From contig NC_017078.1 in the NCBI RefSeq assembly GCF_000284095.1, positions 1 to 64,000 on the forward strand: a stretch of 64,000 nucleotides of DNA. Direction: 5' to 3'. The translations under genes and the position numbers were made by a program. A model generated the notes under the pieces. That model did no database searches, was not told the origin of the DNA, and saw only the letters and a list, made by a program, of their open reading frames with translations. Positions within the stretch are counted from its first letter, which is position 1. The number at the start of each line of letters is the position of its first letter. Shown in pieces: positions 2,956 through 55,383 of the stretch. The stretch comes from Selenomonas ruminantium subsp. lactilytica TAM6421 (GTDB lineage Bacteria > Bacillota > Negativicutes > Selenomonadales > Selenomonadaceae).

Positions 2956-4326
2956 ATGACTGCCAAAAAGAGCTCTCCGATATCTCCCGTAACGGAATAT
3001 CTATATCAAAACCTGGAATTTGATACACCCACAAAATTTGCCAACGAACTGATGTTTGCCAAGCATTCTCTTCGTGAAAATGAAATGAAAATCTGGTTGC
3101 TTACTGTAGCGTCATTGGCCAAGGAAAAGAATCTGAACCATAGTGTTCTTTATGAATATAATATCTCCCTGCTAGCTGATAAACTCAACATCAACAAGGA
3201 TAAAGGCTGGCGCAACATCATCCGGGAAGCCATCGATCACGTCTCCGACAAAAGCCTGAAAATTGTCAAGCGTTACTCCAGCGAAGAGGATAAGCACAAT
3301 TGGCTTAAAATTCCTCTTTACAATTCCGTAGAATACAACGACTTCAACGATACCGTTTCCGTATCCATCAATCAGAAGATGCTTCCCTATCTGCAGGATT
3401 TCACAGAGAAATTTACCGAAGTTGATATCGATGAGATGCTGGCCATCCGGGGAATAACTCAGCTAAAAGTCTTTATGGTGGTCAAGGAGCTCATTGCAGA
3501 GGGAACATATACCATCAGCATCGATCGCTTCAAGGATCGGTTGAACATACCGGTCACGTCCTATGCAAATTTCCGGGATTTTCAGCGTGATGTACTGAAA
3601 AAAGCAGAACAGCAGATACGCAAGAACACATCCTTGACACAGTTTCACTTCTCCCATAATGGCAAAGGACGCAGAGCAGCCACTACCATCACGATCCACC
3701 TGTCTGATGTGGAAGGCAAGGTTCTGCCAGCACCGAAACGGGTAGTAACTACTGAGGATAAGATTGCCGAACTGGATGCCGAGCATATGCGCCTGTTCGA
3801 CGAATATTCCTCCTTTGGCATCAAGCCGGAGGCAACTTGTCTAGATCTCATCAACAACTACAGTCTCGACGTGCTCAAAAGCAATCTGGCTTATTACAAG
3901 GATCAGCTCAAAAAACGTAAGCCGGACCAGGAACCCCTTAGTGCTGGCTATCTAATCACTTGCGTGAAAAAAGATTACGCCAAATCACGGCGGAAAACCT
4001 GGCTACGTAAAGCCGATACCAATGGCAGTGTGGAAACTGAATTGCAGAAGACCGATATGCAACTGGAGGATGTCTACAAGACCTGCAAGAATAATGCTGG
4101 TGTCCTGATCAAGAAAGGCAAGCTGCCGAAGCTGCTCGCAATCTTTGATACAGCCGTCAATTCCATGGAGAACATGGCTATGAATATGGGGATTCCTTTC
4201 GATGCCAGCGAGGCCAGGATCAAGATCCAGAAAAGGGATCTGCGCAATAAGGAGACGATGCTGTTCCGCGAACATCTGGCCCAGCGTCTCATGTCGGGCT
4301 ATATCACGATGGACAGTATGTTATAA
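2956..4326 (+). CDS. repA: Rep_3-family plasmid replication initiator
   Basis: Initiator of 456 aa, expected to bind the iterons upstream and recruit DnaA and helicase. The N-terminal half (about 20-250) has the Rep_3 winged-helix pair pattern: KHSLRENEMKIWLL, then ISLLADKLNI and a second unit with ITQLKVFMVVKELIAEG. The C-terminal ~150 residues are charged and helical. The frame is open from 2887, but ATG 2956 is preferred: upstream codons run through the last half iteron, and AGAAAGGG lies about 12 nt before it. The TATATA tract in between is an unusually long spacer. Its promoter must overlap the iterons, suggesting autoregulation. Confidence 0.88.
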   Translation: MTAKKSSPISPVTEYLYQNLEFDTPTKFANELMFAKHSLRENEMKIWLLTVASLAKEKNLNHSVLYEYNISLLADKLNINKDKGWRNIIREAIDHVSDKSLKIVKRYSSEEDKHNWLKIPLYNSVEYNDFNDTVSVSINQKMLPYLQDFTEKFTEVDIDEMLAIRGITQLKVFMVVKELIAEGTYTISIDRFKDRLNIPVTSYANFRDFQRDVLKKAEQQIRKNTSLTQFHFSHNGKGRRAATTITIHLSDVEGKVLPAPKRVVTTEDKIAELDAEHMRLFDEYSSFGIKPEATCLDLINNYSLDVLKSNLAYYKDQLKKRKPDQEPLSAGYLITCVKKDYAKSRRKTWLRKADTNGSVETELQKTDMQLEDVYKTCKNNAGVLIKKGKLPKLLAIFDTAVNSMENMAMNMGIPFDASEARIKIQKRDLRNKETMLFREHLAQRLMSGYITMDSML

Positions 4327-18709: not shown

Positions 18710-19459
18710 ATGCAGGTGCGAATCATTCGTAAAATTGTCCAAATATTTTTTCTAGTCTTGTTATTGCTGCCCATCTGGTATACGGATCTGCTCTGGTATG
18801 GCACGTATATCTCGGCAGACCTTATGGGATTGCAACTGACCGATCCCTTGACGGCATTGGAGATCACTTTGGCGGGCAAGTCCCTTTGGCTGCCGCTGCT
18901 GTTGTCAGCTTTGCCGTTGACGTTATTGGCTGTGCTGTTGGGGCGGCTCTTTTGCAGCTTTGTCTGTCCCCTTAATTTTCTGCTGGAGCTGATTCCTGTG
19001 AAGCGCAGGCAGGTCCTTAAGGAGAAAAGCCTGCCGCTGGCGGCCTTGGGGATAACGCTTCTTTTGTCATTGATCCTTTCCCTGCCTGTATTTGACACCG
19101 TCTCACCGGTATTTGCCCTGATGCGCGCCCTGCTGTTCGGCGTGGGGCTGGAACTTGTCCTGCTGTTGCTGGTGCTGGCCGCGGCGCTGATCTGGGGACA
19201 GAAAATCTGGTGCCGCACCCTTTGTCCGCTGGGCGCCTTGTACGGTCTTTTGGGTGCGAAGCGGATCTTGAAGGTGCGTGTGGAGGAAAGCAAATGTACC
19301 CACTGCGGCAAATGCGCTGCCGTTTGCAGCATGGGCACCGCGCCGGGACGAGAGAATCTGGCGGACAATATGCTCTGTACCAATTGTGGGGATTGTATCG
19401 ACGTTTGCAGGGAGAAGGCCTTGCATTATAGTTTTAAGGGAAAAAATACGGAGTCATAA
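18710..19459 (+). CDS. napH: NapH-like membrane ferredoxin (quinol dehydrogenase)
   Basis: 249-aa polytopic protein with about four membrane helices, the cytoplasmic CX3CP motifs FCSFVCPLNFL and WCRTLCPLGALYG, and two C-terminal [4Fe-4S] motifs (CTHCGKCAAVC, CTNCGDCIDVC). NapH oxidises menaquinol and works with NapG. Gene order G-H is that of nap clusters of epsilonproteobacteria and Negativicutes. Confidence 0.88.
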   Translation: MQVRIIRKIVQIFFLVLLLLPIWYTDLLWYGTYISADLMGLQLTDPLTALEITLAGKSLWLPLLLSALPLTLLAVLLGRLFCSFVCPLNFLLELIPVKRRQVLKEKSLPLAALGITLLLSLILSLPVFDTVSPVFALMRALLFGVGLELVLLLLVLAAALIWGQKIWCRTLCPLGALYGLLGAKRILKVRVEESKCTHCGKCAAVCSMGTAPGRENLADNMLCTNCGDCIDVCREKALHYSFKGKNTES

Positions 19460-31938: not shown

Positions 31939-33243
31939 CTATTTTTCAACCACCGCCTGATCGATTTCCTGCCCGTCTGGCAGGAAGCATTTGATGAGCA
32001 GGCGGTTTTCATTTGCCTCTAGTGTCAGGTAATTGTCGGTTTCCGGCTGGGGGGCCACCTTTTCGTCCAAAGCATGGTCAATCCAGAGGCCGGGGTAGCG
32101 GACATTGCCGGCCACGCCGGTGAGGATATAAAGGGGGCCGCTGCTATCCCGCTGGAAGTTGCGGATATGTCCCCGGTTGCGGTAGGTGTGCAAATGGGCG
32201 GTAAAGACCACATCAATGCCCAGCTCGTCAAAGAGGGGCATAAAGGCCTCGCCCAAACCGGAAATACCCTCTTTGCGCTCGGGCCGCTTGGTAATGCGGT
32301 ATTGCAGCACGTCCTTATGGATGAGCACAATCTGCCAACGTTTCTTGCTCGCTGCCGCGCTTTTTTGCAGCCATTTTTTCTGTTCTTCCAGCAGGCCGGG
32401 CTTGAAGTCTTCTGTCTCATCCCACTGGCTGTTGAGCACCATGAAATGCACGTTGCCATAGTCGAAGTCATAATAATAGCGGGCAAAATCCTTGCTGCCG
32501 TTGTCCGGCACGGCAAAGTAATGGAGATAGGCTTCGGGCAGGCGCACCTTCCAGTTCAGGTCATAGGTCTCATGGTTGCCCATCAGGGGAGCAAAGGGGA
32601 TGCGGTCAATGATTCCGTCTACGCCATTGAACCAAGCTTGCCATTGGGTGTGGTCTTCGCCATTGTCCACGATATCGCCCATATTGATAAAGAACTCCGC
32701 ATCGGGATTAAGTTTTGCCGCTGTTTGGGCCAGATTTTCCCAGTCACTGTAATCGCTGGACTGGGAGTCGGGGAATAGCAGGCACTTGAAGGCCCTGGTT
32801 CCGGCAGTTTTGAGGCTGTGCCAGTCGCTGGCATGGCCTTCCGATACCAGCCGGTACTCGTAGTCCGTTTCCGGGGTGAGGTTATCCAGCCGGGCCAGAT
32901 ACTGCAGGTTCTCCACGCCATCATCGGTGAAAAAGTCTTCCTGTGCATCAATCGTCAGCGAATCATGCTGCCCACTGAGCCGGTACTCCACCTGCGGCTG
33001 GGAAAGCCTACTGGCCGCCTGCCACATCAGCACCCGGCTGGTGGCGGCATCCGTTGTTATCATCTGCCGCAGGAATCTGGCCTGCAGATCTTCCGTCAAA
33101 GACCGTACGCCCGTGACGGCCTGTCGGTAGAGGGAGCCTTTTGTAAAATAAGCACCTCCGGCCAGCAACAGAGCCCCGGCGGCAATCCCTTTTAGAAACC
33201 TGCGGCGTGAGAGCAGGTTTTTGTTCTTTGGTTCGTTTTTCAT
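31939..33243 (-). CDS. Tat-exported metallophosphatase (purple acid phosphatase-like)
   Basis: 434 aa. Twin-arginine signal SRRRFLKGIAAGALLLAGG at 12-30, a fibronectin-like N-terminal domain (about 60-150), then a calcineurin-like phosphoesterase with the metal motifs FPDSQ, NMGDIVDNG, MGNHE, LIHKD and TAHLHTY (usual GHxH is AHLH here). It would act in the periplasm on phosphate esters. Its promoter has the MerR-type 19-bp spacer (33280-33310), so it is probably under control of the MerR gene 188 bp away. The ribosome site GAGGATG fixes the start. Confidence 0.9.
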   Translation of the reverse strand: MKNEPKNKNLLSRRRFLKGIAAGALLLAGGAYFTKGSLYRQAVTGVRSLTEDLQARFLRQMITTDAATSRVLMWQAASRLSQPQVEYRLSGQHDSLTIDAQEDFFTDDGVENLQYLARLDNLTPETDYEYRLVSEGHASDWHSLKTAGTRAFKCLLFPDSQSSDYSDWENLAQTAAKLNPDAEFFINMGDIVDNGEDHTQWQAWFNGVDGIIDRIPFAPLMGNHETYDLNWKVRLPEAYLHYFAVPDNGSKDFARYYYDFDYGNVHFMVLNSQWDETEDFKPGLLEEQKKWLQKSAAASKKRWQIVLIHKDVLQYRITKRPERKEGISGLGEAFMPLFDELGIDVVFTAHLHTYRNRGHIRNFQRDSSGPLYILTGVAGNVRYPGLWIDHALDEKVAPQPETDNYLTLEANENRLLIKCFLPDGQEIDQAVVEK

Positions 33244-33279: not shown

Positions 33280-33310
33280 ACTTTACTACTTGGAGCCAGC
33301 TTCAAGTCAA
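33280..33310 (-). promoter_or_regulatory. MerR-type promoter of the metallophosphatase gene
   Basis: On the minus strand: TTGACT (33310-33305), a 19-bp spacer holding the dyad TGAAGC...CTCCAAG, then TAAAGT (33285-33280). The 19-bp spacer is the hallmark of MerR-activated promoters. Confidence 0.75.
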
Positions 33311-33430: not shown

Positions 33431-33802
33431 TTATGATTTTAGTTTTTCCGAGCATTTGAGAATCTCATCATAATGGGAAATCTTGTAGTCCAACCGCTTC
33501 AGGGTGGACTGCAAGTTTTCCAACTGTTCCTGCAGGCGGGCACGCTGCTCCACGAGAATATCCTTGCGGGCTGCCTCGGTGCCTTCCTGGAAGAATAAGG
33601 CAACGTAATCGATGAGGGCTTCTACCTGAACCCCGGCGCCGCGCATGCACTTGATAAATTCCACCCAGCCGCAGGAGGCCTCGTCAAAATCCCGGATGCC
33701 GTTTTCCTTGCGGGGCACATGGGGGATAAGGCCAATGCGCTCGTAGTAGCGGATGGTGTCCGCAGAAAGATCGTATTTTTCGCTGACTTCCTTGATGGTC
33801 AT
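33431..33802 (-). CDS. MerR-family transcriptional regulator
   Basis: 123 aa. The N-terminal winged helix is MTIKEVSEKYDLSADTIRYY-ERIGLIPHVPRKENGIRDF, followed by a dimerising coiled coil (about 80-115) and a very short C-terminus. There is no metal-binding cysteine array, so it fits the AdhR/YyaN/NmlR-like group that senses electrophiles or unknown small molecules; Cys46 or so in EASCGWVEF and C58 in IKCMRG are candidate sensors. It has its own MerR-type promoter, so it autoregulates, and it matches four other such promoters in this window. Confidence 0.9.
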   Translation of the reverse strand: MTIKEVSEKYDLSADTIRYYERIGLIPHVPRKENGIRDFDEASCGWVEFIKCMRGAGVQVEALIDYVALFFQEGTEAARKDILVEQRARLQEQLENLQSTLKRLDYKISHYDEILKCSEKLKS

Positions 33803-33841: not shown

Positions 33842-33872
33842 AGTTTAACACTTGGAGTCCACTCCAAGTCAA
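33842..33872 (-). promoter_or_regulatory. Autoregulatory MerR-type promoter
   Basis: On the minus strand: TTGACT (33872-33867), a 19-bp spacer containing the perfect dyad CTTGGAGT-GG-ACTCCAAG, then TAAACT (33847-33842). It drives the merR gene. Confidence 0.8.
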
Positions 33873-35438: not shown

Positions 35439-35939
35439 ATGAGGCTTTTTATCAGCATTCAATTTACGGAACCAGTGATAAATGCTTTGGAGGCTTTTCA
35501 GTCGCGACTAAAAGATTCTGGTGTGGAAGGATATTTTGCTGTCCGGGAAAATCTGCATTTAACGCTGGCTTTTATCGGAGATTACGGGGCACCAGATGAA
35601 GTCATGGATGTTATAGAGACCGTTCCGTTTGAGCCTATGACCATGAAACTCAACGGTATGGGGAGTTTCGGCGATGTATATTGGGCTGGAATAGAACAGA
35701 ACACCAGCCTAGATAATTATGTCAGGAGGCTGCGCAGGGCTCTGGCTGAGCATAAAATTCCCTATGATCGCAAGCGGTTCTTCCCGCATATTACGGTAGT
35801 TCGCAAGGCAATCTATCGTGGCAAGACTGTTTTGCCTCAGGTCGAGCCGCCGCAGGGCAAGATGGTTATAGAACACATTTCCCTAATGAGATCAGAACGT
35901 GGCAAGCATGGCATGATTTATACGGAGATTGGAATCTAG
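35439..35939 (+). CDS. thpR: RNA 2',3'-cyclic phosphodiesterase (2H family)
   Basis: 166-aa 2H phosphoesterase of the ThpR/LigT group. Both catalytic HxTx motifs are present: NLHLTLAFIG (~43-46) and FPHITVVRK (~124-127). It hydrolyses 2',3'-cyclic phosphate ends of RNA in the cytoplasm. Length is near the usual 175-190 aa. ATG 35439 follows GGTGG loosely; the gene stands alone after the cobO remnant. Confidence 0.88.
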   Translation: MRLFISIQFTEPVINALEAFQSRLKDSGVEGYFAVRENLHLTLAFIGDYGAPDEVMDVIETVPFEPMTMKLNGMGSFGDVYWAGIEQNTSLDNYVRRLRRALAEHKIPYDRKRFFPHITVVRKAIYRGKTVLPQVEPPQGKMVIEHISLMRSERGKHGMIYTEIGI

Positions 35940-36100
35940 TGGTCAAGCATTTTTGTAACACTTGTGTCTTAATAATTGCTGATTCCTGTCCTGGCGAGTC
36001 CATTGTGCTATTGAACATCGCTGCCAGCGATAGCCTTGCTTTCAAGCCCAGCGTGAAATACTGATGGCGAAAAAAGAGCCAGCCATAAAGACTCATAGTG
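35940..36100. other. Intergenic stretch without recognised feature
   Basis: Between converging thpR and budA genes. It contains minor inverted repeats (TCGCTGCCAGCGA near 36020) but no clear gene or T-tailed terminator. Confidence 0.3.
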
Positions 36101-37605: not shown

Positions 37606-37636
37606 TTGACTTGAAGTTCACTCAAGGGTATAGACT
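37606..37636 (+). promoter_or_regulatory. MerR-type promoter of the DXS-like gene
   Basis: TTGACT (37606-37611), 19-bp spacer TGAAGTTCACTCAAGGGTA, TAGACT (37631-37636). The dyad is imperfect on its right arm. Confidence 0.75.
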
Positions 37637-37681: not shown

Positions 37682-39169
37682 ATGTATTTAGAGAAAGTCA
37701 ATAGTCCTCAGGATATTAAAGGTTTTTCTGCAGAGCAGCGCAAGGCACTGGCACAGGAAATGCGGGATGCCATGCTGAAACGAGCCAGCATCCACGGTGG
37801 CCACTTCGGCCCGGATTTTGGGATTGTGGAGGCGGTCATTGCCCTGCATACGGTGTTTGACTCGCCAAAGGATAAATTTGTCTTTGACATTTCCCATCAG
37901 GCCTATCCCCATAAGATGCTGACGGGACGCAGGGATGCTTACCTTTACGAAGAGCATTATGATGATGTGTCGGGCTACACCAACCCGGAGGAAAGCGAGC
38001 ATGATATGTTCAATGTTGGCCACACATCCACTTCCATCAGTTTGGCCACTGGTCTGGCCAAGGCCCGCGACCTCAAGGGGGACAAGGAGAATATCGTTGC
38101 CATTATCGGCGATGGTTCCATGAGTGGCGGCGAGGCTTTGGAAGGGCTGGATACGGCCGGGGAAATGAAGTCCAATCTGATCATTGTGTTCAACGATAAT
38201 GACCAGAGCATTGCTGAGGTTCATGGCGGCATGTATAAGGGCTTCAAAGAGCTGCGTGATACCAACGGTAAGTCAGAGCGTAATCTGTTCAAGGCAATGG
38301 GGCTTGATTACCGGTTCGTCGCTGACGGCAATGATACAGAAACACTGATATCTGCTTTTGAAGAGGTTAAGGATATTGACCATCCGGTGGTAGTGCATAT
38401 CGTCACTCAAAAGGGAAAAGGCTATAAGTTTGCCGAAGAGAACAAAGAAGACTGGCATTGGCATATGCCCTTTGATATTGAAACGGGCGAGGTCAAGCAG
38501 GCGCTGGTTGATCCCTACGCAGAGCAGACCGCCGAAACTTTCCTGCGGCTGGCCAAGGAAGATAAGAAATTCATTGCCATCTCTGCAGCTACTCCAGCCA
38601 GCATGGGGCTTACGCAAGCTCGTCGTGAGGAACTTGGAGAACACTACATTGACGTTGGCATTGCTGAGGAGCAGGCTGTGGCCATGGCTTCCGGGTTGGC
38701 GCGCAATGGCGCTCATCCCGTATTTGGCGATTATGCTTCCTTCTTCCAGCGCACTTATGACCAGCTGGCGCAGGATGTCTGTGTCAACAACAGCCCCGCA
38801 ACCTTCCTGGTGTTCTGGGCCTCCATGTACGGCATGAACGATGTGACGCACCTGGGTTTCTATGATATTCCCATGATGAGCAATATCCCGAACCTCGTGT
38901 ATCTGGCACCGACTTCCCCGGAAGAATATCAAGCCATGCTGGACTGGGCCATTCCGCAGGATAAATATCCCGTGGCTATCCGCGTCCCCCATGCCATGGT
39001 GGGCAGCTCCAAGCGTCCGGTGCGCAAGTCTTATGACGAACTCAATCGGTACGAAGTGGTGAAGGAAGGCAGCCATGTAGCCCTGATCGGCTTGGGCAAT
39101 TTCTATAATCTGGCGGAAGAAGCAGCGACCAAACTCAAAGAACAGGGCATCGTGAAGTGGGGTATGTAG
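37682..39169 (+). CDS. DXS/transketolase-like thiamine enzyme, C-terminally truncated
   Basis: 495 aa, resembling 1-deoxyxylulose-5-phosphate synthase paralogues of ~580-620 aa. Thiamine diphosphate binding motif GDGSMSGGEALEGLDTAGEM-N (GDG...N), GHTSTSISLATGLA, and the pyrimidine domain with DVGIAEEQAVAMASGLA (catalytic Glu) and YASFFQRTYDQLAQD. The third domain breaks off after LKEQGIVKWGM, about 90 residues early, inside a 13-bp hairpin. It may still be active since the third domain is not catalytic. The MerR-type promoter and AAAGGAG (37668-37674) indicate regulated expression. Confidence 0.8.
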   Translation: MYLEKVNSPQDIKGFSAEQRKALAQEMRDAMLKRASIHGGHFGPDFGIVEAVIALHTVFDSPKDKFVFDISHQAYPHKMLTGRRDAYLYEEHYDDVSGYTNPEESEHDMFNVGHTSTSISLATGLAKARDLKGDKENIVAIIGDGSMSGGEALEGLDTAGEMKSNLIIVFNDNDQSIAEVHGGMYKGFKELRDTNGKSERNLFKAMGLDYRFVADGNDTETLISAFEEVKDIDHPVVVHIVTQKGKGYKFAEENKEDWHWHMPFDIETGEVKQALVDPYAEQTAETFLRLAKEDKKFIAISAATPASMGLTQARREELGEHYIDVGIAEEQAVAMASGLARNGAHPVFGDYASFFQRTYDQLAQDVCVNNSPATFLVFWASMYGMNDVTHLGFYDIPMMSNIPNLVYLAPTSPEEYQAMLDWAIPQDKYPVAIRVPHAMVGSSKRPVRKSYDELNRYEVVKEGSHVALIGLGNFYNLAEEAATKLKEQGIVKWGM

Positions 39170-43141: not shown

Positions 43142-43174
43142 TTTGACCAGTCAAATGACTGGTCAAATTTTTTA
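43142..43174 (+). terminator. Palindromic terminator after the autotransporter
   Basis: TTTGACCAGTCA (43142-43153) pairs with 43156-43167 and runs into T6. A near copy lies at 53879-53910. Confidence 0.75.
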
Positions 43175-43183
43175 CAAAATATA

Positions 43184-43243
43184 TTGACATAGTGTCATTA
43201 TAACCCTATAATACAAAGTGTCAATAAAAGTTACATTGTGTCA
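43184..43243 (+). promoter_or_regulatory. Promoter and double TetR-type operator of the tetR gene
   Basis: TTGACA (43184-43189), 17-bp spacer, TATAAT (43207-43212). The palindrome TGACATAGTGTCA (43185-43197) covers the -35 box, and TTACATTGTGTCA (43231-43243) lies 46 bp downstream. The same pair flanks the promoter at 45630. Confidence 0.8.
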
Positions 43244-43267: not shown

Positions 43268-43903
43268 ATGCCAAAGATATCGGAAGAAGAGATGCTGGCA
43301 CGGCGGGAAAGTATTGTCGATGCCTGTGCCAAACTGTATGAGACGATGAGTTTCAAGGACATCACCCTGAAGGAAGTTGGGAAGGTCACGACCTTCAACC
43401 GCACTGCCATCTACAACTATTTCAACACCAAGGAGGAAATCTTCCTGGCGCTGATGCAGCGGGAGTATGAATTATGGGTGGCAGACTTAGAGGGCATGAT
43501 GGCAGCGCATGCTGCTATGAGTCGGGAAGAACTGGCCTCTGCGCTGGCACATTCATTGGAGAAACGGCAGCGTCTGCTGAAACTTCTGTCCATGAATCAC
43601 TTTGATATGGAGGAGAACAGCCGTCATGAGAATCTGGTAGAATTCAAGAAAGCTTATGGTGCTTCCATCAAGGCGGTGCATCGTTGTCTGGATAAGTATT
43701 GTCCGGAGATGAGCGAGGAGGAAAAGACAAGCTTCCTTTATGCCTATTTTCCCTTTATGTACGGCATCTACCCCTATGTGATGGTTACCGACAAGCAGCG
43801 GCAGGCCATGGAGGAGGCCGATGTAGGTTTTCGTTACTATTCGATTTACGAAATCACCTACAACTGCCTGCGCAAGCTGCTAGGCGTCGAGAAGAGCGTG
43901 TAA
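43268..43903 (+). CDS. TetR-family transcriptional regulator
   Basis: 211 aa. N-terminal helix-turn-helix: ARRESIVDACAKLYETMSF, ITLKEVGKVTTFNRTAIYNYFNTKEEIF; the rest is an all-helical ligand domain with aromatic residues (FLYAYFPFMYGIYPYVM). GGAGG lies 7 nt before ATG 43268. It leads an operon with an FMN reductase and an amidohydrolase. The palindromes around its promoter and at three other local promoters make it the likely repressor of those genes. Inducer unknown. Confidence 0.92.
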   Translation: MPKISEEEMLARRESIVDACAKLYETMSFKDITLKEVGKVTTFNRTAIYNYFNTKEEIFLALMQREYELWVADLEGMMAAHAAMSREELASALAHSLEKRQRLLKLLSMNHFDMEENSRHENLVEFKKAYGASIKAVHRCLDKYCPEMSEEEKTSFLYAYFPFMYGIYPYVMVTDKQRQAMEEADVGFRYYSIYEITYNCLRKLLGVEKSV

Positions 43904-45629: not shown

Positions 45630-45688
45630 TTGACATAGTGTCATTTAGAGAATATAATACAATCATCAAAAAAAGTTACACGGTGTCA
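45630..45688 (+). promoter_or_regulatory. Promoter and double TetR-type operator of the first aldo/keto reductase
   Basis: TTGACA (45630-45635), 17-bp spacer, TATAAT (45653-45658); TGACATAGTGTCA (45631-45643) over the -35 box and TTACACGGTGTCA (45676-45688) downstream, 45 bp apart. Confidence 0.8.
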
Positions 45689-49154: not shown

Positions 49155-49180
49155 TTGACATGGTGTCATCTTGATATAAA
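49155..49180 (+). promoter_or_regulatory. TetR-type operator before the repeat protein gene
   Basis: TTGACA (49155-49160) overlapped by TGACATGGTGTCA (49156-49168). A TATAAA lies 14 bp on (49175-49180), closer than usual. No second palindrome is seen. Confidence 0.7.
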
Positions 49181-49218: not shown

Positions 49219-49869
49219 ATGAAGAAAAAGAATTTTGTTTTAATGGCAATGATGGCAGCGCTGACTACTTCGAGCATAGCTTCAGCTTCTACGATCACAG
49301 TAGAAGGTTCTATACAGGGAAATACTGCCGTAACAATGCAGGATGGCGTGATTGCGAAATCCTATCCAATCAACAAGGACCAGGAAGTGATTTACTACAG
49401 CGCCAATAGCAGCGATGCAGGTTCAATCAAGGAAGTTATCGATCATAATCCAACGTCTTATCAAAAGATGGAAGTTGCAGGCCATACGGTTGAAAGCTGG
49501 GTGGAAAATGGTGTGGCTTACACTAAGGACAATGGGCAGTTGGTAAAATCCTATAAAGTCAATGGGCATATAGATAAAATCGTCGCAAAATCTGGTGATG
49601 ATGCTGGTTCCATCATCCGTACGGTAGATCATAATCCAACACTTGAGCAGACGGTTACCCTGCTGGGCCATACAGCCAAAAGCTGGTTGGAGGGCAATGA
49701 AGTAAAGTCCGAAGTTGATGGCAGACAGGGCAAGACATATACAATCAATAAAGATATCGAGACGATTTATTATGACAGCAAAAGCAGCGACAATGCAGGT
49801 TCCATTAAAGAAGTAATCGATCATAATCCTGATTGCTATCAGACGATGACGATTGAGTTGGGTGAGTAA
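49219..49869 (+). CDS. Secreted protein with three DAGSIKEVIDHNP repeats
   Basis: 216 aa; signal peptide to about residue 23 (SIASAS). The mature protein has three repeats of about 62-64 residues, each with an AGSI-x2-V-DHNP core (DHNP at 75, 137 and 201) preceded by a K-I/V-x-YY strand and followed by T-LGHT-x2-SW. No cysteine except near the end. No family recognised. It is probably periplasmic; each unit may be a small beta domain binding a ligand. The TetR-type operator upstream places it in the redox regulon. Confidence 0.75.
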   Translation: MKKKNFVLMAMMAALTTSSIASASTITVEGSIQGNTAVTMQDGVIAKSYPINKDQEVIYYSANSSDAGSIKEVIDHNPTSYQKMEVAGHTVESWVENGVAYTKDNGQLVKSYKVNGHIDKIVAKSGDDAGSIIRTVDHNPTLEQTVTLLGHTAKSWLEGNEVKSEVDGRQGKTYTINKDIETIYYDSKSSDNAGSIKEVIDHNPDCYQTMTIELGE

Positions 49870-51030: not shown

Positions 51031-51061
51031 TTGACCTGAAGTTCACTTCAAGTGTTAAGGT
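51031..51061 (+). promoter_or_regulatory. MerR-type promoter of the CMD-cupin gene
   Basis: TTGACC (51031-51036), 19-bp spacer TGAAGTTCACTTCAAGTGT, TAAGGT (51056-51061). The dyad TTGAAGT-like arms are nearly perfect. Confidence 0.8.
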
Positions 51062-51100: not shown

Positions 51101-51979
51101 ATGAAGGGAAAGAAAATCTTGGCCGCAGCAATAGCTGCAGGCATGTTCATGACAAATTTTACATTTATGGAGGCAGCTATGGCACAGACGAAAAAAGCAG
51201 TAAAGATTACACAGACCGCAGGCAGAACGCAATTAGGGGAATTTGCTCCGGATTTTGCCCGCTATAATGATGATATTCTCTTTGGAGAGGTATGGTCAAA
51301 AAATGATGTCCTGTCCCTGCATGACCGCAGCATCGTGACGGTTTCGGCATTGGTGGCCAGCGGCATGACAGACAGCTCTTTGAAATATCATCTGCAGTCG
51401 GCAAAGAAGAACGGCGTTACCCGTGAGGAAATGGCTGAGGTCATCACCCAACTGGGGTTCTATGCGGGCTGGCCCAAGGCCTGGGCGGCGTTCAATCTGG
51501 CCAAGGAAGTCTATAACGAGCCAGTTACCCAGAATACAGAGACCAAAGGAAACAATCATATGGATTTGGAAACCATCAAGGAAACCAGCTTGTTCCCCGT
51601 TGGCGGTGAAAATGTCAACTATGCCCAGTACTTTGACGGCAAAAGCTATCTCCATATGGTTTCCCTCGACCAGGTAGTGATTGGCAATGTGACCTTTGAG
51701 CCGGGCTGCCGCAACCATTGGCATATCCATCATGCCGACAAAGGCGGCGGGCAGATGCTGCTGGTCACTGCCGGCCGTGGCTGGTATCAGGAATGGGGCA
51801 AGCCTGCTCAGGAATTGAAGGTGGGAGATGTCGTGCATATCCCCGCAGGTGTCAAGCACTGGCATGGCGCCGCCAAGGACTCCGCCTTCCAGCATATCGC
51901 CATCGAGGTGCCGGGAGAAAATACTTCCAATGAGTGGTGTGAGCCGGTGGAGGAAAAAGAGTATAACAGATTGCCGTAG
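51101..51979 (+). CDS. Exported carboxymuconolactone decarboxylase-like domain fused to cupin
   Basis: 292 aa with a signal peptide (~1-28). Residues 50-140 are a CMD/AhpD-like domain (FGEVWSKNDVLSLHDRSIVTVSALVAS, broken here; key region LSLHDRSIVTVSAL); it lacks the CxxC of AhpD. Residues 170-285 form a cupin barrel with metal ligands HWHIHHAD and GVKHWHGA. Such fusions stand beside flavodoxins and aldo/keto reductases in many anaerobes. It may process a quinone-like or lactone substrate in the periplasm. AAAGGAG precedes the ATG. Confidence 0.88.
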   Translation: MKGKKILAAAIAAGMFMTNFTFMEAAMAQTKKAVKITQTAGRTQLGEFAPDFARYNDDILFGEVWSKNDVLSLHDRSIVTVSALVASGMTDSSLKYHLQSAKKNGVTREEMAEVITQLGFYAGWPKAWAAFNLAKEVYNEPVTQNTETKGNNHMDLETIKETSLFPVGGENVNYAQYFDGKSYLHMVSLDQVVIGNVTFEPGCRNHWHIHHADKGGGQMLLVTAGRGWYQEWGKPAQELKVGDVVHIPAGVKHWHGAAKDSAFQHIAIEVPGENTSNEWCEPVEEKEYNRLP

Positions 51980-52013
51980 ATGGATATGAATGGTTGAGAA
52001 AGGAGCAAAACGC

Positions 52014-52640
52014 ATGAAGAAATTATGGATTGCCTGCTTGTCCATGCTGATGGTACTGGGGCTGATGGGCTGCGGCACGGATAATGGCAAGGCCGAGGAA
52101 AAGACACCGCCAGCTAAAACGGTGGCTCAGGCGGCTAATACTGATGCTGCGGCAGCAGGAGATAAGATCTTAGTCGCTTATTTTTCCGCGACAGGCAATA
52201 CGAAGCAGCTGGCGGAGAATACCGCCAAGGCCCTGGGCGCAGATTTGTATGAAATTCGGCCGGAATCCCCCTATACGGCCGAAGACCTGAATTACAATGA
52301 TGAAACGACCAGGGCCACGGTAGAGCAGAAAAATGATGGCTTCCGCCCCTCCTTAGCGGACAAGAATGCCCCCATTGCCAGCTACAAGACCATTATTCTG
52401 GCCTATCCCATCTGGTGGGCTCAGGCGCCCCGCATCATGGACACATTCGTGGAAAGCTATGACTTTACGGGCAAGAATATGACGGCTGTCTGCACCTCCG
52501 GCGGCAGTGATATCGGCAGCAGTGCAGATTATCTGGCCAAGCTTACCAAAGGCAAGGCCAATTGGAAACCGGGCAAGTTATTCAGCCCGCAGGCCGGCAC
52601 CGATGAAATCAAAGCCTGGTATAATGGCTTAGGCTTCTAA
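52014..52640 (+). CDS. Flavodoxin-domain lipoprotein
   Basis: 208 aa. Lipoprotein signal with lipobox LGLMGC (C~20), a Lys/Glu/Ala-rich linker, then a flavodoxin domain: KILVAYFSATGNTKQLAE (FMN phosphate loop), PIWWAQAPRIMDTF, and CTSGGSDIGSSADYL. It would carry FMN-dependent electrons in the periplasm, unusual for flavodoxins. A similar domain without signal is encoded at 54907. AAAGGAG before ATG 52014. Confidence 0.88.
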   Translation: MKKLWIACLSMLMVLGLMGCGTDNGKAEEKTPPAKTVAQAANTDAAAAGDKILVAYFSATGNTKQLAENTAKALGADLYEIRPESPYTAEDLNYNDETTRATVEQKNDGFRPSLADKNAPIASYKTIILAYPIWWAQAPRIMDTFVESYDFTGKNMTAVCTSGGSDIGSSADYLAKLTKGKANWKPGKLFSPQAGTDEIKAWYNGLGF

Positions 52641-52696
52641 ATTGCATATCATCAAGAAATTTATGAGCAGTATAGATTGGCTGGGGGGATTGTGTA

Positions 52697-53830
52697 ATGA
52701 AGGAAAAAATGACTCGCAGGAATTTTGTAAAGCTGGCAGGTATGGCCGTTGCTATAGCCGCTTTGCCAGGGTGTGCGACCTTTGCCGCTGACGAAAAAGG
52801 TGCAGGAGCAAATGAGCCGTTGGGGAAGGCGAAAGTCGCTGGTACCGGCGGGGAGCACTATCTTCCCTATAGGGAGCGGCAAGGGGCAGAGTCGGTGGTT
52901 TATTTTACCCGCGACCTGTCGGCGGCCGGACTGCTGAAAATCTATGACAAGGTGAAGGATAAGCTGGGCGGCAAGGTGGCTGTCAAACTGCACACGGGTG
53001 AGCCCCATGGCCCCAATATTATTCCCCGCCCCTGGGTGAAAGATTTGCTGCAGAACCGCCTATCGGAGGGCACCATCATCGAAACCAACACCTATTATGG
53101 CGGTGGCCGTGATACCACTGAGAAACACCGGGAGACACTGAAGACCAATGGCTGGACGGATTTCACCACGGTGGATATCATCGATGCAGAAGGTACGGCC
53201 ATGTTGCCGGTGCCAAATGGCAAGTGGTTCACAGAGATGTCCGTGGGCAAGGATATGCTGAAGTACGACTCGCTTTTGACCTTGACGCATTTCAAAGGGC
53301 ATGCTATGGGCGGTTTTGGCGGCTCCAATAAAAATCTCGGCATTGGCTGTGCGGATGGAAAAATCGGCAAGAAGATGATTCATGCCGGAGAAAGCGGTTC
53401 CCAGTGGGGTGTGACTAATGAGGAGTTCATGGAGCGCATGACTGAATCCACTCAGGCTACAGTCACGCATTTCAAGGACAAGATTGCCTTCATCAATGTG
53501 ATGCGCAATATGAGCGTGGACTGTGACTGCGCCGGTACCTCGGCCCAGCCTGTCGTCACGCCGGATATTGGTATTGTGGCCTCCTTGGATATTCTGGCTG
53601 CGGACCAGGCTTGTGTGGACTGTGTCTACGCCCTGCCGGAGGAAAGCAAGCATGATTTGGTGGAGCGCATGGAATCCCGTCACAGCATGCGCCAGCTGAC
53701 CTATATGAAGGAAATGGGCATGGGCAATGACCGCTATCAGCTGATTGACCTCGATAATGGCGACAAAGTGATCACGGCTGCCGAAGCCGTAAAGGATATC
53801 AAGGGAACCTGGGGAACAGGCCGAGCTTGA
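52697..53830 (+). CDS. DUF362-family protein with Tat-type signal
   Basis: 377 aa. Leader TRRNFVKLAGMAVAIAALPG-C (Tat plus lipobox-like LPGC). The mature protein is DUF362-like: VAVKLHTGEPHGPNIIPR, TNTYYGGGRDTTEKH, LTHFKGHAMGGFGGSNKNLG, and Cys in SVDCDCAG and DQACVDCVYALPEES. These proteins often bind Fe-S clusters, but the usual CxxCxxC ferredoxin motif is not complete here. Function unknown. It is last of the CMD-cupin/flavodoxin transcript. Confidence 0.85.
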   Translation: MKEKMTRRNFVKLAGMAVAIAALPGCATFAADEKGAGANEPLGKAKVAGTGGEHYLPYRERQGAESVVYFTRDLSAAGLLKIYDKVKDKLGGKVAVKLHTGEPHGPNIIPRPWVKDLLQNRLSEGTIIETNTYYGGGRDTTEKHRETLKTNGWTDFTTVDIIDAEGTAMLPVPNGKWFTEMSVGKDMLKYDSLLTLTHFKGHAMGGFGGSNKNLGIGCADGKIGKKMIHAGESGSQWGVTNEEFMERMTESTQATVTHFKDKIAFINVMRNMSVDCDCAGTSAQPVVTPDIGIVASLDILAADQACVDCVYALPEESKHDLVERMESRHSMRQLTYMKEMGMGNDRYQLIDLDNGDKVITAAEAVKDIKGTWGTGRA

Positions 53831-53878
53831 CTCTTTCTATCAACAGTACCTCAAGTAAATAAACCCTAAGACAGCAGA

Positions 53879-53910
53879 TTTTGACCGGTCAATTGACTGG
53901 TCAAAATTTT
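53879..53910 (+). terminator. Palindromic terminator after the DUF362 gene
   Basis: TTTTGACCGGTCAA pairs with TTGACTGGTCAAAA (53879-53906), followed by TTTT. Near copy of the hairpin at 43142. Confidence 0.7.
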
Positions 53911-53921
53911 GCTCATAATAC

Positions 53922-53987
53922 TGATATGGTGTCAATAATGCTGTGCAAAAAATAGCTTGACTTAAAGTTCACTCGAAGTGTCAGAGT
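53922..53987 (+). promoter_or_regulatory. Promoter region with both TetR- and MerR-type sites
   Basis: TGATATGGTGTCA (53922-53934), one base from the TetR-type palindrome, is followed by TTGACT (53957-53962), a 19-bp spacer with TAAAGTTCACTCGAAGTGT and a weak -10 CAGAGT (53982-53987). It precedes a broken gene and the DUF4405-flavodoxin pair. Confidence 0.6.
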
Positions 53988-54035
53988 GGATTTCAGCAGG
54001 AAAAATTTATTATTTAAGCAGGAAGGTAAGGGAAA

Positions 54036-54203
54036 ATGGACGTATATAAGAAACAGGTATTTGATGAAGAACGGGCTCTGTATGGCAAAACGGGGGTGCA
54101 ACTATCAAAGTGACGGGCGTGAAGGAAATCATTAGGGATGATGTGGATGCCAAAGGCCGCATCGTTCTTGCCGAAGAATCTCATTGCGCCTGAGGGAGTG
54201 TAG
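54036..54203 (+). pseudogene. Broken small gene
   Basis: ATG 54036 (GGAAGG upstream) opens MDVYKKQVFDEERALYGK and stops at 54113. The next frame continues ATIKVTGVKEIIRDDVDAKG, and a third frame ends LPKNLIAPEGV at TAG 54203. Two frameshifts in 170 bp indicate decay. FDEERALYG recalls the start of DUF3737 proteins, but this is weak. Confidence 0.5.
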
Positions 54204-54207
54204 GCCT

Positions 54208-54882
54208 ATGAATTACCGGAGCATAAATCGGCGCATGGCCGTAACGGCGCTTTTGCCGTTGCTGTTTGTGCTGGCCATGAGCTTTCATTATATCCCCAAG
54301 CTGCTGCATGAAATCATAGGCGCAGCCTGGCTCCTGCTGGCAGGAGTTCATCTCTATCAGAACCGTCACTGGCTGAAAAGCCTGCAGCAGGGCAAATGGA
54401 CTTTCCAGAGGACTTTGGGCACGGTCATGGATATCCTGCTGCTTGCCGTGGTGCTGGTGGCTGTGTTTGCCGGCCTTGGCATATCCAACTTCCTGCTGAA
54501 AGATGTCATGCCGTTGGAAATCCAGCGCAGCATTGTCATTCATCAGTATCATGTATCCCTGCCCTATGCTCTGCTGATTTTGTGCGGCCTCCACTGGGGC
54601 CTGCATTTCAAAGGCTGGCTGGGGCAGTGGCAAAAGGTCTTTGGCTGGAAACTGTCTGCTGTGGCTAAACGGGCAATTGTGGCAGCCTTGAGCCTGGCGG
54701 TGCTCAGTGCGGGCATTTATGCTTCGTTCCTGAACCGCATCGGCGACCGTCTGCTGATGAAACATATCTTTGCCACGGCCGCCACCAATGAACCGGCGGC
54801 CATCTATGTACTGCTGCTCTGCGGAACCATCGGACTTTATGTTTTGCTCGGAGCCGCATTGCAGCGTTATCTAAAAGCATGA
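54208..54882 (+). CDS. DUF4405-like membrane protein (possible b-type cytochrome)
   Basis: 224 aa with about five membrane helices. Histidines occur in helix positions typical of cytochrome-b561/DUF4405 proteins: SFHYIPKLLHEIIGA, LLLAGVHLYQNRHW, IVIHQYHVSLPYALL, GLHWGLHFKGW. It probably binds heme and moves electrons across the inner membrane, which would suit the adjacent flavodoxins. GAGGGAG lies 9 nt before ATG 54208. Confidence 0.8.
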   Translation: MNYRSINRRMAVTALLPLLFVLAMSFHYIPKLLHEIIGAAWLLLAGVHLYQNRHWLKSLQQGKWTFQRTLGTVMDILLLAVVLVAVFAGLGISNFLLKDVMPLEIQRSIVIHQYHVSLPYALLILCGLHWGLHFKGWLGQWQKVFGWKLSAVAKRAIVAALSLAVLSAGIYASFLNRIGDRLLMKHIFATAATNEPAAIYVLLLCGTIGLYVLLGAALQRYLKA

Positions 54883-54906
54883 ACATTTGATATTGGAGGT
54901 AATCAC

Positions 54907-55383
54907 ATGAGTAAGAAATTAGTAGCTTATTTTTCCGCCAGCGGTGTGACGGCAAAGGCTGCCAAGAACCTTGCCGAGGCGGCTGGGGCAGATTTGTTTG
55001 AAATCAAGCCGGAAGTGCCCTATACCCAGGCCGATTTGGATTGGCATGACAAGAATTCCCGCAGCTCCGTGGAGATGCGGGACAGCAAATCTCGTCCGCA
55101 GATTGCGGCAGGTGATGCCAAGATTGCGGACTATGATGTGATATTTGTGGGCTTTCCCATCTGGTGGTATGTGGCGCCCACCATCATCAACACCTTCCTG
55201 GAAAGCTATGATTTTGCCGGCAAGACCATAATTCTCTTCGCCACATCCGGCGGCAGCGGCTTTGGCAAGGCCGTGGAAGGGCTGAAAGACAGCGTGGCAG
55301 ATAGCACCGTTATCCGGGAAGGCAAACTGCTGAACGGGAATCCTTCGGTTGCTGAACTTAAAGACTGGGTGGAAAGCTTATAA
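54907..55383 (+). CDS. Flavodoxin
   Basis: 158-aa cytoplasmic flavodoxin domain: [55 protein letters not shown]. Homologous to the lipoprotein at 52014 but with no signal. TTGGAGG precedes the ATG. Likely co-transcribed with the DUF4405 gene and the last member of the redox cluster. Confidence 0.9.

What the first reader, a model, noticed from the sequence alone, without database searches (positions are those of the whole stretch)
53922..55383. Two regulatory systems meet at one promoter
The TetR-type palindrome (53922-53934) is placed directly upstream of a MerR-type promoter (53957-53987) that leads to DUF4405 and flavodoxin genes. The same gene set shares both regulators elsewhere (TetR at 45.6 and 49.2 kb, MerR at 37.6 and 51.0 kb), suggesting a combined sensing system of repressor release and activator switching for one class of toxic compound.
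Basis: inference. Interest (0 to 1): 0.72.

Follow-up and report, generated by a model that had tools for sequence, protein, structure and literature searches.

The report
MerR promoter beside decayed TetR site
In a relative of the rumen bacterium Selenomonas ruminantium, a MerR-type switch promoter for an oxidoreductase operon has, just upstream, a damaged copy of the on/off site of a neighbouring TetR repressor; the two regulators do share this stretch of chromosome, but here the repressor site looks more like a leftover than a working second input.

Summary
TGATATGGTGTCA (53922-53934) is one base off the operator TGACAYNRTGTCA, and a 19-bp-spacer MerR promoter follows at 53957-53987. Both likely regulators are encoded in the window: a TetR (43268-43903) and an NmlR-like MerR (33431-33802). 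The bipartite TetR operator occurs in 14 of 15 genus genomes with this tetR and 0 of 7 without it. The combined-sensing idea is only partly supported: the TetR site lies upstream of the MerR -35, has a changed half-site and no usable -10, is absent in sister genome G019 where the MerR promoter is intact, and the exact-half-site tandem was found in 1 of 380 class genomes. Four related genomes have a full TetR promoter, behind a terminator hairpin, after the same upstream gene. Best reading: a working MerR promoter next to the stub of a TetR promoter, brought together by gene shuffling. Across relatives most of the island's genes sit under one regulator or the other; the DUF4405-like gene is the main exception. 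Mostly ordinary, with modest interest for regulon evolution. No binding or expression data.

The parts
53922..53934 (+). Degenerate TetR operator TGATATGGTGTCA; likely stub of a TetR-type promoter (-35 position CTGATA 53921-53926, -10 position TGCAAA 53944-53949)
   Evidence: One mismatch to the motif; score 14.9 against 20.9-21.3 for exact sites and 15.2-15.3 for the downstream operators 43231 and 45676; same place as a full TetR promoter in four relatives; hexamers read
53957..53987 (+). MerR-type promoter: -35 TTGACT 53957-53962, 19-bp spacer with inverted repeat, -10 CAGAGT 53982-53987
   Evidence: the only -10 of 56 listed that begins with C; TAGAGT in G004 and G019, CAGAGT also in G014
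53878..53907 (.). 30-bp near-perfect palindrome; most likely the intrinsic terminator of the operon upstream
   Evidence: Inverted repeat 93%; RNA fold -23.6 kcal/mol, z -7.3; other hairpins with T-runs stand in this place before TetR promoters of other genomes
54036..54193 (+). Remnant of a DUF3737 gene with an internal deletion
   Evidence: Intact 283-aa DUF3737 gene (377.4 bits) at this place in G004; both ends of it recognisable here
54208..54882 (+). DUF4405-like membrane protein gene (membrane nature inferred from its letters)
   Evidence: PF14358 at 17.0 bits, below the 26.7 cut-off; match in 78 of 150 genomes searched, own included
54907..55383 (+). Flavodoxin gene
   Evidence: PF12682, 248.7 bits
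43268..43903 (+). TetR-family regulator (TetR_C_34), likely owner of the TGACAYNRTGTCA operators
   Evidence: PF17929 62.1 bits; operator upstream of it and of homologues
43184..43243 (+). tetR promoter with two TetR operators (43185-43197 over the -35, and 43231-43243)
45630..45688 (+). TetR-type promoter before an aldo/keto reductase gene (45715), two operators
49156..49168 (+). Exact TetR operator upstream of the gene at 49222
33431..33802 (-). NmlR-like MerR regulator with Cys52
   Evidence: NF041849 145.2 bits, cut-off 175; Cys52 aligned with a Cys of H. influenzae HI_0186
33842..33872 (-). MerR-type promoter of the merR gene itself
33280..33310 (-). MerR-type promoter before a phosphoesterase gene (31939-33243)
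37606..37636 (+). MerR-type promoter before a transketolase-like gene (37682-39169)
51031..51061 (+). MerR-type promoter before the CMD-cupin / flavodoxin / DUF362 genes (51101-53830)

Best explanation
The DUF4405-flavodoxin operon is driven by one working promoter, the MerR-type promoter at 53957-53987. By its motif it is switched by the NmlR-like MerR encoded at 33431-33802: the regulator sits on the over-long 19-bp spacer and, when triggered (probably by a reactive carbonyl or other electrophile at Cys52), twists the DNA so that polymerase can start near 53994. The TetR motif at 53922-53934 is the decaying remainder of a separate TetR-repressed promoter that once followed the terminator behind DUF362, as one still does in related genomes, and was left beside the MerR promoter by gene shuffling. 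Shown here: the motifs, their conservation, the full TetR promoter at the matching place in relatives, its absence in a sister genome. Inferred: which protein binds which motif, the inducer, the start site, and that the remnant has little or no effect.
For: Four relatives (G002, G013, G017, G021) have after the same DUF362 gene a terminator hairpin and a complete TTGACA/TATAAT promoter with two TetR operators; the G000 junction aligns with each better than any of 2000 shuffles. In G000 the matching -35 reads CTGATA and the -10 position TGCAAA. G019 lacks 130 bp, palindrome and TetR site together, between two AGCTTGACT repeats (53824 and 53954 in G000), yet keeps the MerR promoter. The exact-half-site tandem is in 1 of 380 class genomes, control 0; a TetR-like site with at most one mismatch is within 130 bp upstream of 2 of 59 MerR-type promoters. 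At tetR and other full targets the operator overlaps the -35. The 19-bp spacer fits the MerR mechanism reviewed in PMC9909328 (passages seen).
Against: The G000 site scores 14.9, nearly as well as the downstream operators 43231 and 45676 (15.2-15.3), which are conserved in place, so binding is possible. In G004 the site keeps both half-sites (TGACAAAGTGTCA, 17.45), and this exact word is the best site ahead of tetR in 5 of 80 other loci. The four relatives with the full promoter are close to one another, and the same hairpin-plus-operator module also stands before tetR in this genome (43143-43197), so the alignment partly reflects a common module. The DUF4405-like gene of G000 is in a different branch from those under TetR promoters, so the stub need not have been its own promoter. 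The MerR -10 is also changed here (CAGAGT), so the whole promoter may be weakening. No binding or expression data.
Confidence: 0.65

Rival explanations
1. Live dual-input promoter: TetR bound at 53922-53934 tunes the MerR promoter, for example by blocking upstream contacts of polymerase, so that full expression needs repressor release and activator switching.
For: A one-mismatch operator sits 22 bp before a MerR -35, which none of the 57 MerR-type promoters outside this locus shows; G004 keeps a version with both arms, 23 bp before its MerR -35; the same island holds both regulators.
Against: Site upstream of the -35, changed in one half-site, absent in G019, exact-half-site tandem in 1 of 380 genomes.
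Confidence: 0.2
2. Tandem promoters: the TetR stub or a nearby -10 still gives a weak separate transcript under TetR control, alongside the MerR promoter.
For: A weak promoter-like match (9 of 12) runs from 53893 to 53922, and one on the minus strand (10 of 12, 53935 to 53906) uses a half-site of the TetR word as its -35; G004 keeps -35 CTGACA.
Against: No acceptable -10 at the conserved distance (TGCAAA). Consensus matches are common by chance: 29 found, 16.8 expected in the region scanned.
Confidence: 0.08
3. The TetR-like word at 53922 is a chance resemblance.
For: With up to one mismatch the motif is listed at 29 places in 3.63 Mb, and the reversed control at 12; sites 3635 and 19093 in the window score slightly higher.
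Against: Same place and similar spacing as a full TetR promoter behind a similar hairpin in four relatives.
Confidence: 0.04
4. The stronger palindrome at 53878-53907 is the real repressor operator here.
For: Near-perfect tandem TTGACYGGTCAA, with a like element upstream of tetR at 43143.
Against: At 2 of 4 like places in contig C1 (1146167, 2215592) it forms the core of a longer hairpin followed by a T-run (the other two were not resolved), and in other genomes hairpins of other sequence with T-runs hold its place before TetR promoters.
Confidence: 0.03

Closest known systems
NmlR/AdhR clade of MerR regulators (carbonyl stress)
   Same: Best NCBIfam match is NmlR; Cys at position 52; 19-bp spacer promoters; a likely target with a carboxymuconolactone decarboxylase domain, as B. 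subtilis AdhR has yraC (PMC4776306, passages seen).
   Different: Below the NmlR curated cut-off (145.2 of 175 bits); the closest solved relative, 3gp4, has no Cys at that position; other likely targets are flavodoxins, DUF362, transketolase-like and phosphoesterase genes; inducer unknown.
TetR-family repressors with a palindrome over the -35
   Same: TetR_C_34 and TetR_N domains, likely self-regulated promoter, palindromic operator overlapping the -35 plus a second site downstream.
   Different: Only distant relatives with solved structures (best 38.8 bits); ligand unknown. I did not search papers for the operator string itself.
Regulon turnover between species, as in comparative regulon studies (for example PMC5343134, seen in a search listing only)
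   Same: Homologous genes found behind motifs of different regulators in related genomes.
   Different: Here a remnant of the one promoter type still sits beside the other.

Membership tests
MerR-type promoter | 19-20 bp spacer between -35 and -10 with a palindrome in it | tested here: met
   TTGACT-N19-CAGAGT; definition from PMC9909328 passages
NmlR/AdhR clade | Curated NmlR model over its cut-off | tested here: not met
   NF041849 145.2 bits, cut-off 175
NmlR/AdhR clade | Conserved sensing Cys (Cys54 of H. influenzae, Cys52 of B. subtilis) | tested here: met
   Cys52 aligned with a Cys in HI_0186 chains; residue role from PMC4776306 passages
NmlR/AdhR clade | Responds to formaldehyde or methylglyoxal | not testable with these tools
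   needs expression data
TetR family | N-terminal TetR_N HTH domain over cut-off | tested here: met
   PF00440 24.5 bits, cut-off 24
TetR-controlled promoter at 53922 | Operator with both half-sites intact, over the -35 of a promoter with a -10 | tested here: not met
   One half-site changed, -35 position CTGATA, -10 position TGCAAA
TetR-controlled promoter at 53922 | Bound by this TetR | not testable with these tools
   needs footprinting
Composite TetR/MerR regulatory device | Recurrent, conserved tandem arrangement | tested here: not met
   Exact half-sites: 1 of 380 class genomes; at most one mismatch: 2 of 59 MerR-type promoters; absent in G019
DUF4405 | PF14358 over cut-off | tested here: not met
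   17.0 bits, cut-off 26.7

The most novel reading that the evidence does not exclude
The junction is a caught intermediate of a regulon takeover: an oxidoreductase gene set controlled by this TetR in many gut and rumen anaerobes has, in Selenomonas, been partly taken over by an NmlR-like MerR, and in G000 and G004 the old TetR promoter still stands as a stub next to the new MerR promoter and may still modulate it. In the 20 nearest named loci the CMD-cupin, DUF362 and flavodoxin homologues are behind MerR-type sites (25 genes) or no site (6), never behind TetR sites; in the 60 more distant loci no MerR-type site was found and 25 loci have such a homologue behind a TetR site. The homologues are as low as 38% identical and may include paralogues, and the direction of change is not shown.
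Probability: 0.25. Interest if true: 0.5.

Novelty: new member of a known kind. Interest (0 to 1): 0.3.

Why it matters
It defines two predicted regulons of an oxidoreductase island in Selenomonas that I saw described in none of the search listings I obtained, with a clear TetR operator that recurs before tetR homologues of several phyla, and it offers a compact natural case for watching genes move between two regulators. If the site at 53922 were shown to bind, this would be a promoter with inputs from two regulator families; as it stands it warns against reading neighbouring motifs as combined logic.

Tried and rejected
Palindrome 53878-53907 as operator: judged less likely than terminator. 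The terminator case is not uniform: of 29 TetR-type promoters listed, 18 have an upstream stretch folding at -15 kcal/mol or better, and others (for example 45630 in the window) have only a T-run.

Composite promoter as a recurrent design: not found. needs exact TetR half-sites, so it does not find the window's own one-mismatch case.

Direct ancestry of the G000 DUF4405 promoter from the TetR-controlled DUF4405 promoters: not simply supported. In a tree of 18 rows (11 MerR-labelled, 7 TetR-labelled) the label needs 3 changes (2 without G052 and G023, whose promoters are over 3.5 kb away), G000 lies in a MerR-labelled branch, and four rows have long branches.

Motif-gene concordance was clean for TetR (14 of 15 against 0 of 7). 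Of the 15, G009 has only a 56-residue fragment of the gene, and G003, the one genome with tetR but no exact match, has a one-mismatch site. It was imperfect for MerR: gene in 20 of 22, strict motif in 19 of 22; G008, G015 and G016 have the gene without the strict motif, G009 and G020 the motif without the gene (G009 and G020 are 88% and 81% complete). The strict motif also misses the promoter at 53957 because of its -10.

Counts dropped protein hits under 40% identity, took the nearest promoter upstream on the same strand within 3.5 kb, and left out loci L093 and L122; they are not corrected for kinship. The operator was not found (best two or more mismatches) ahead of tetR in 19 of 80 loci, and one search kept 80 of 131 relatives.

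Paper searches gave listings and one search gave no paper; passages were seen only of PMC4776306 and PMC9909328.

Full report
What is there. The intergenic stretch between the DUF362 gene (52697-53830) and the DUF4405-like gene (54208-54882) holds, in order: a 30-bp near-perfect palindrome at 53878-53907, the word TGATATGGTGTCA at 53922-53934, a MerR-type promoter TTGACT-N19-CAGAGT at 53957-53987, and a broken DUF3737 gene at 54036-54193. The DUF3737 gene is intact (283 aa, 377.4 bits) at this place in G004, carries the same internal deletion in G014 as in the window, and is shortened by other deletions in G019.

The regulators. A TetR_C_34 regulator lies at 43268-43903, and the promoter before it has the exact operator over its -35 and a second, one-mismatch site 46 bp on. 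The motif TGACAYNRTGTCA occurs exactly 3 times in the 3.63-Mb genome, all in this window: 43185, 45631, 49156. Within 250 bp upstream of tetR homologues in named genomes it is present with at most one mismatch in 61 of 80 loci (36 exact), against 0 of 80 for the reversed pattern; 19 of 80 lack it. By record title these loci include Negativicutes, Clostridia, Synergistota, a Treponema and Gastranaerophilales (80 kept of 131). Within the genus the bipartite promoter is found in 14 of the 15 genomes with this tetR and in 0 of the 7 without it (Fisher 4.7e-5, not corrected for kinship). The MerR gene (33431-33802, minus strand) is closest to the NmlR model but under its cut-off, has Cys52, which aligns with a Cys of H. 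influenzae HI_0186 though not with one in the closest solved relative 3gp4, and has its motif upstream. MerR gene and motif go together less cleanly than for TetR (see Tried and rejected). The review PMC4776306 (passages seen) reports a cysteine conserved throughout the NmlR clade and a carboxymuconolactone decarboxylase gene among the B. subtilis AdhR targets; a CMD-cupin gene is a likely target here too. That the spacer repeat resembles the published AdhR operator is recalled only; that paper was not held.

Division of labour. Taking the nearest promoter within 3.5 kb upstream of each gene copy in 30 loci of 23 genomes, TetR-type promoters lead to tetR (17 of 20 copies), the amidohydrolase (12 of 14), FMN reductase (12 of 14), AKR2 (10 of 13), YCII (10 of 15), AKR1 (7 of 8) and alpha/beta hydrolase (5 of 6); the rest had no promoter found or one farther off, and none had a MerR type. 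MerR-type promoters lead to CMD-cupin (13 of 15), DUF362 (11 of 11), phosphoesterase (9 of 9), the second flavodoxin (7 of 8), transketolase-like (6 of 6) and merR (6 of 8), with no TetR type within the limit. Mixed are the DUF4405-like gene (11 MerR, 5 TetR, of 19), the lipoprotein flavodoxin (14 MerR, 1 TetR, of 16) and a small thioesterase-like gene (3 TetR, 2 MerR, of 5). So the island is shared, but most genes are not. In the named loci the picture differs with distance (4-kb limit): in the 20 nearest, CMD-cupin, DUF362 and flavodoxin homologues follow MerR-type sites in 25 cases and TetR sites in none, with one FMN-reductase homologue behind a MerR-type site; in the 60 others there is no MerR-type site, and 25 loci have such a homologue behind a TetR site.

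The junction. In G002, G013, G017 and G021 the same DUF362 gene is followed by a terminator hairpin and a full TetR promoter with two operators, leading to AKR2 and the DUF4405-like gene, or in G017 to the latter directly. The G000 junction aligns with each of the four better than any of 2000 shuffles, though these four are close kin and a like hairpin-plus-operator module also stands before tetR in this genome. In G000 that promoter's -35 and -10 are not recognisable and the operator has one changed base. G004 has TGACAAAGTGTCA instead. In G014 the MerR operator is interrupted by what looks like an insertion sequence, the two parts lying on different contigs. In G019 a 130-bp deletion between AGCTTGACT repeats removed palindrome and TetR site but left the MerR promoter whole.

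The 30-bp palindrome. It folds at -23.6 kcal/mol (z -7.3). The doubled TTGACYNGTCAA pattern is listed at 7 places in the genome. Of the 4 in contig C1, two (1146167 and 2215592) are the core of longer G-C-extended hairpins followed by a T-run; the other two were not resolved. Before tetR homologues of other genomes, hairpins of other sequence with T-runs stand in its place. Terminator is the better reading.

Verdict. The working promoter is most likely the MerR-type one; the TetR word beside it is most likely a remnant. Against this: the site still scores close to conserved secondary operators, G004 keeps both arms, the DUF4405 tree does not make the remnant a simple ancestor, the MerR -10 is itself changed in G000 and G014, and nothing here measures binding or transcription.

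Noticed in passing
window 54036-54193: DUF3737 gene with an internal deletion; same deletion in G014, other deletions in G019, intact in G004.
   Followed up: yes
window 35939-35985 (minus strand): 47 of 47 bases identical to the insertion-sequence-like end that interrupts the MerR operator in G014, so an IS end or remnant probably lies here.
   Followed up: partly
window 53878-53907 and 43143-43166: Tandem TTGACYRGTCAA palindromes, likely terminators; the pattern was listed at 7 places in the genome.
   Followed up: partly
G000:C8:35593-35961 (L006, L016): A second MerR gene, 92% identical to the window's, with a one-mismatch MerR motif upstream and nearby a site like the one before the window's transketolase-like gene: perhaps a partial second copy of the system.
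   Followed up: no
G000:C10:64927 and 80478 (L014, L015): Two more exact MerR-type sites just beyond the window's right end.
   Followed up: no
window 53982-53987: The MerR promoter's -10 begins with C; of 56 sites listed, 53 begin with T, two with A. G004 and G019 have T, G014 has C.
   Followed up: partly
window 3635-3647 and 19093-19105: Two one-mismatch TetR-like words far from the island that score slightly higher than 53922; their surroundings were not examined.
   Followed up: no
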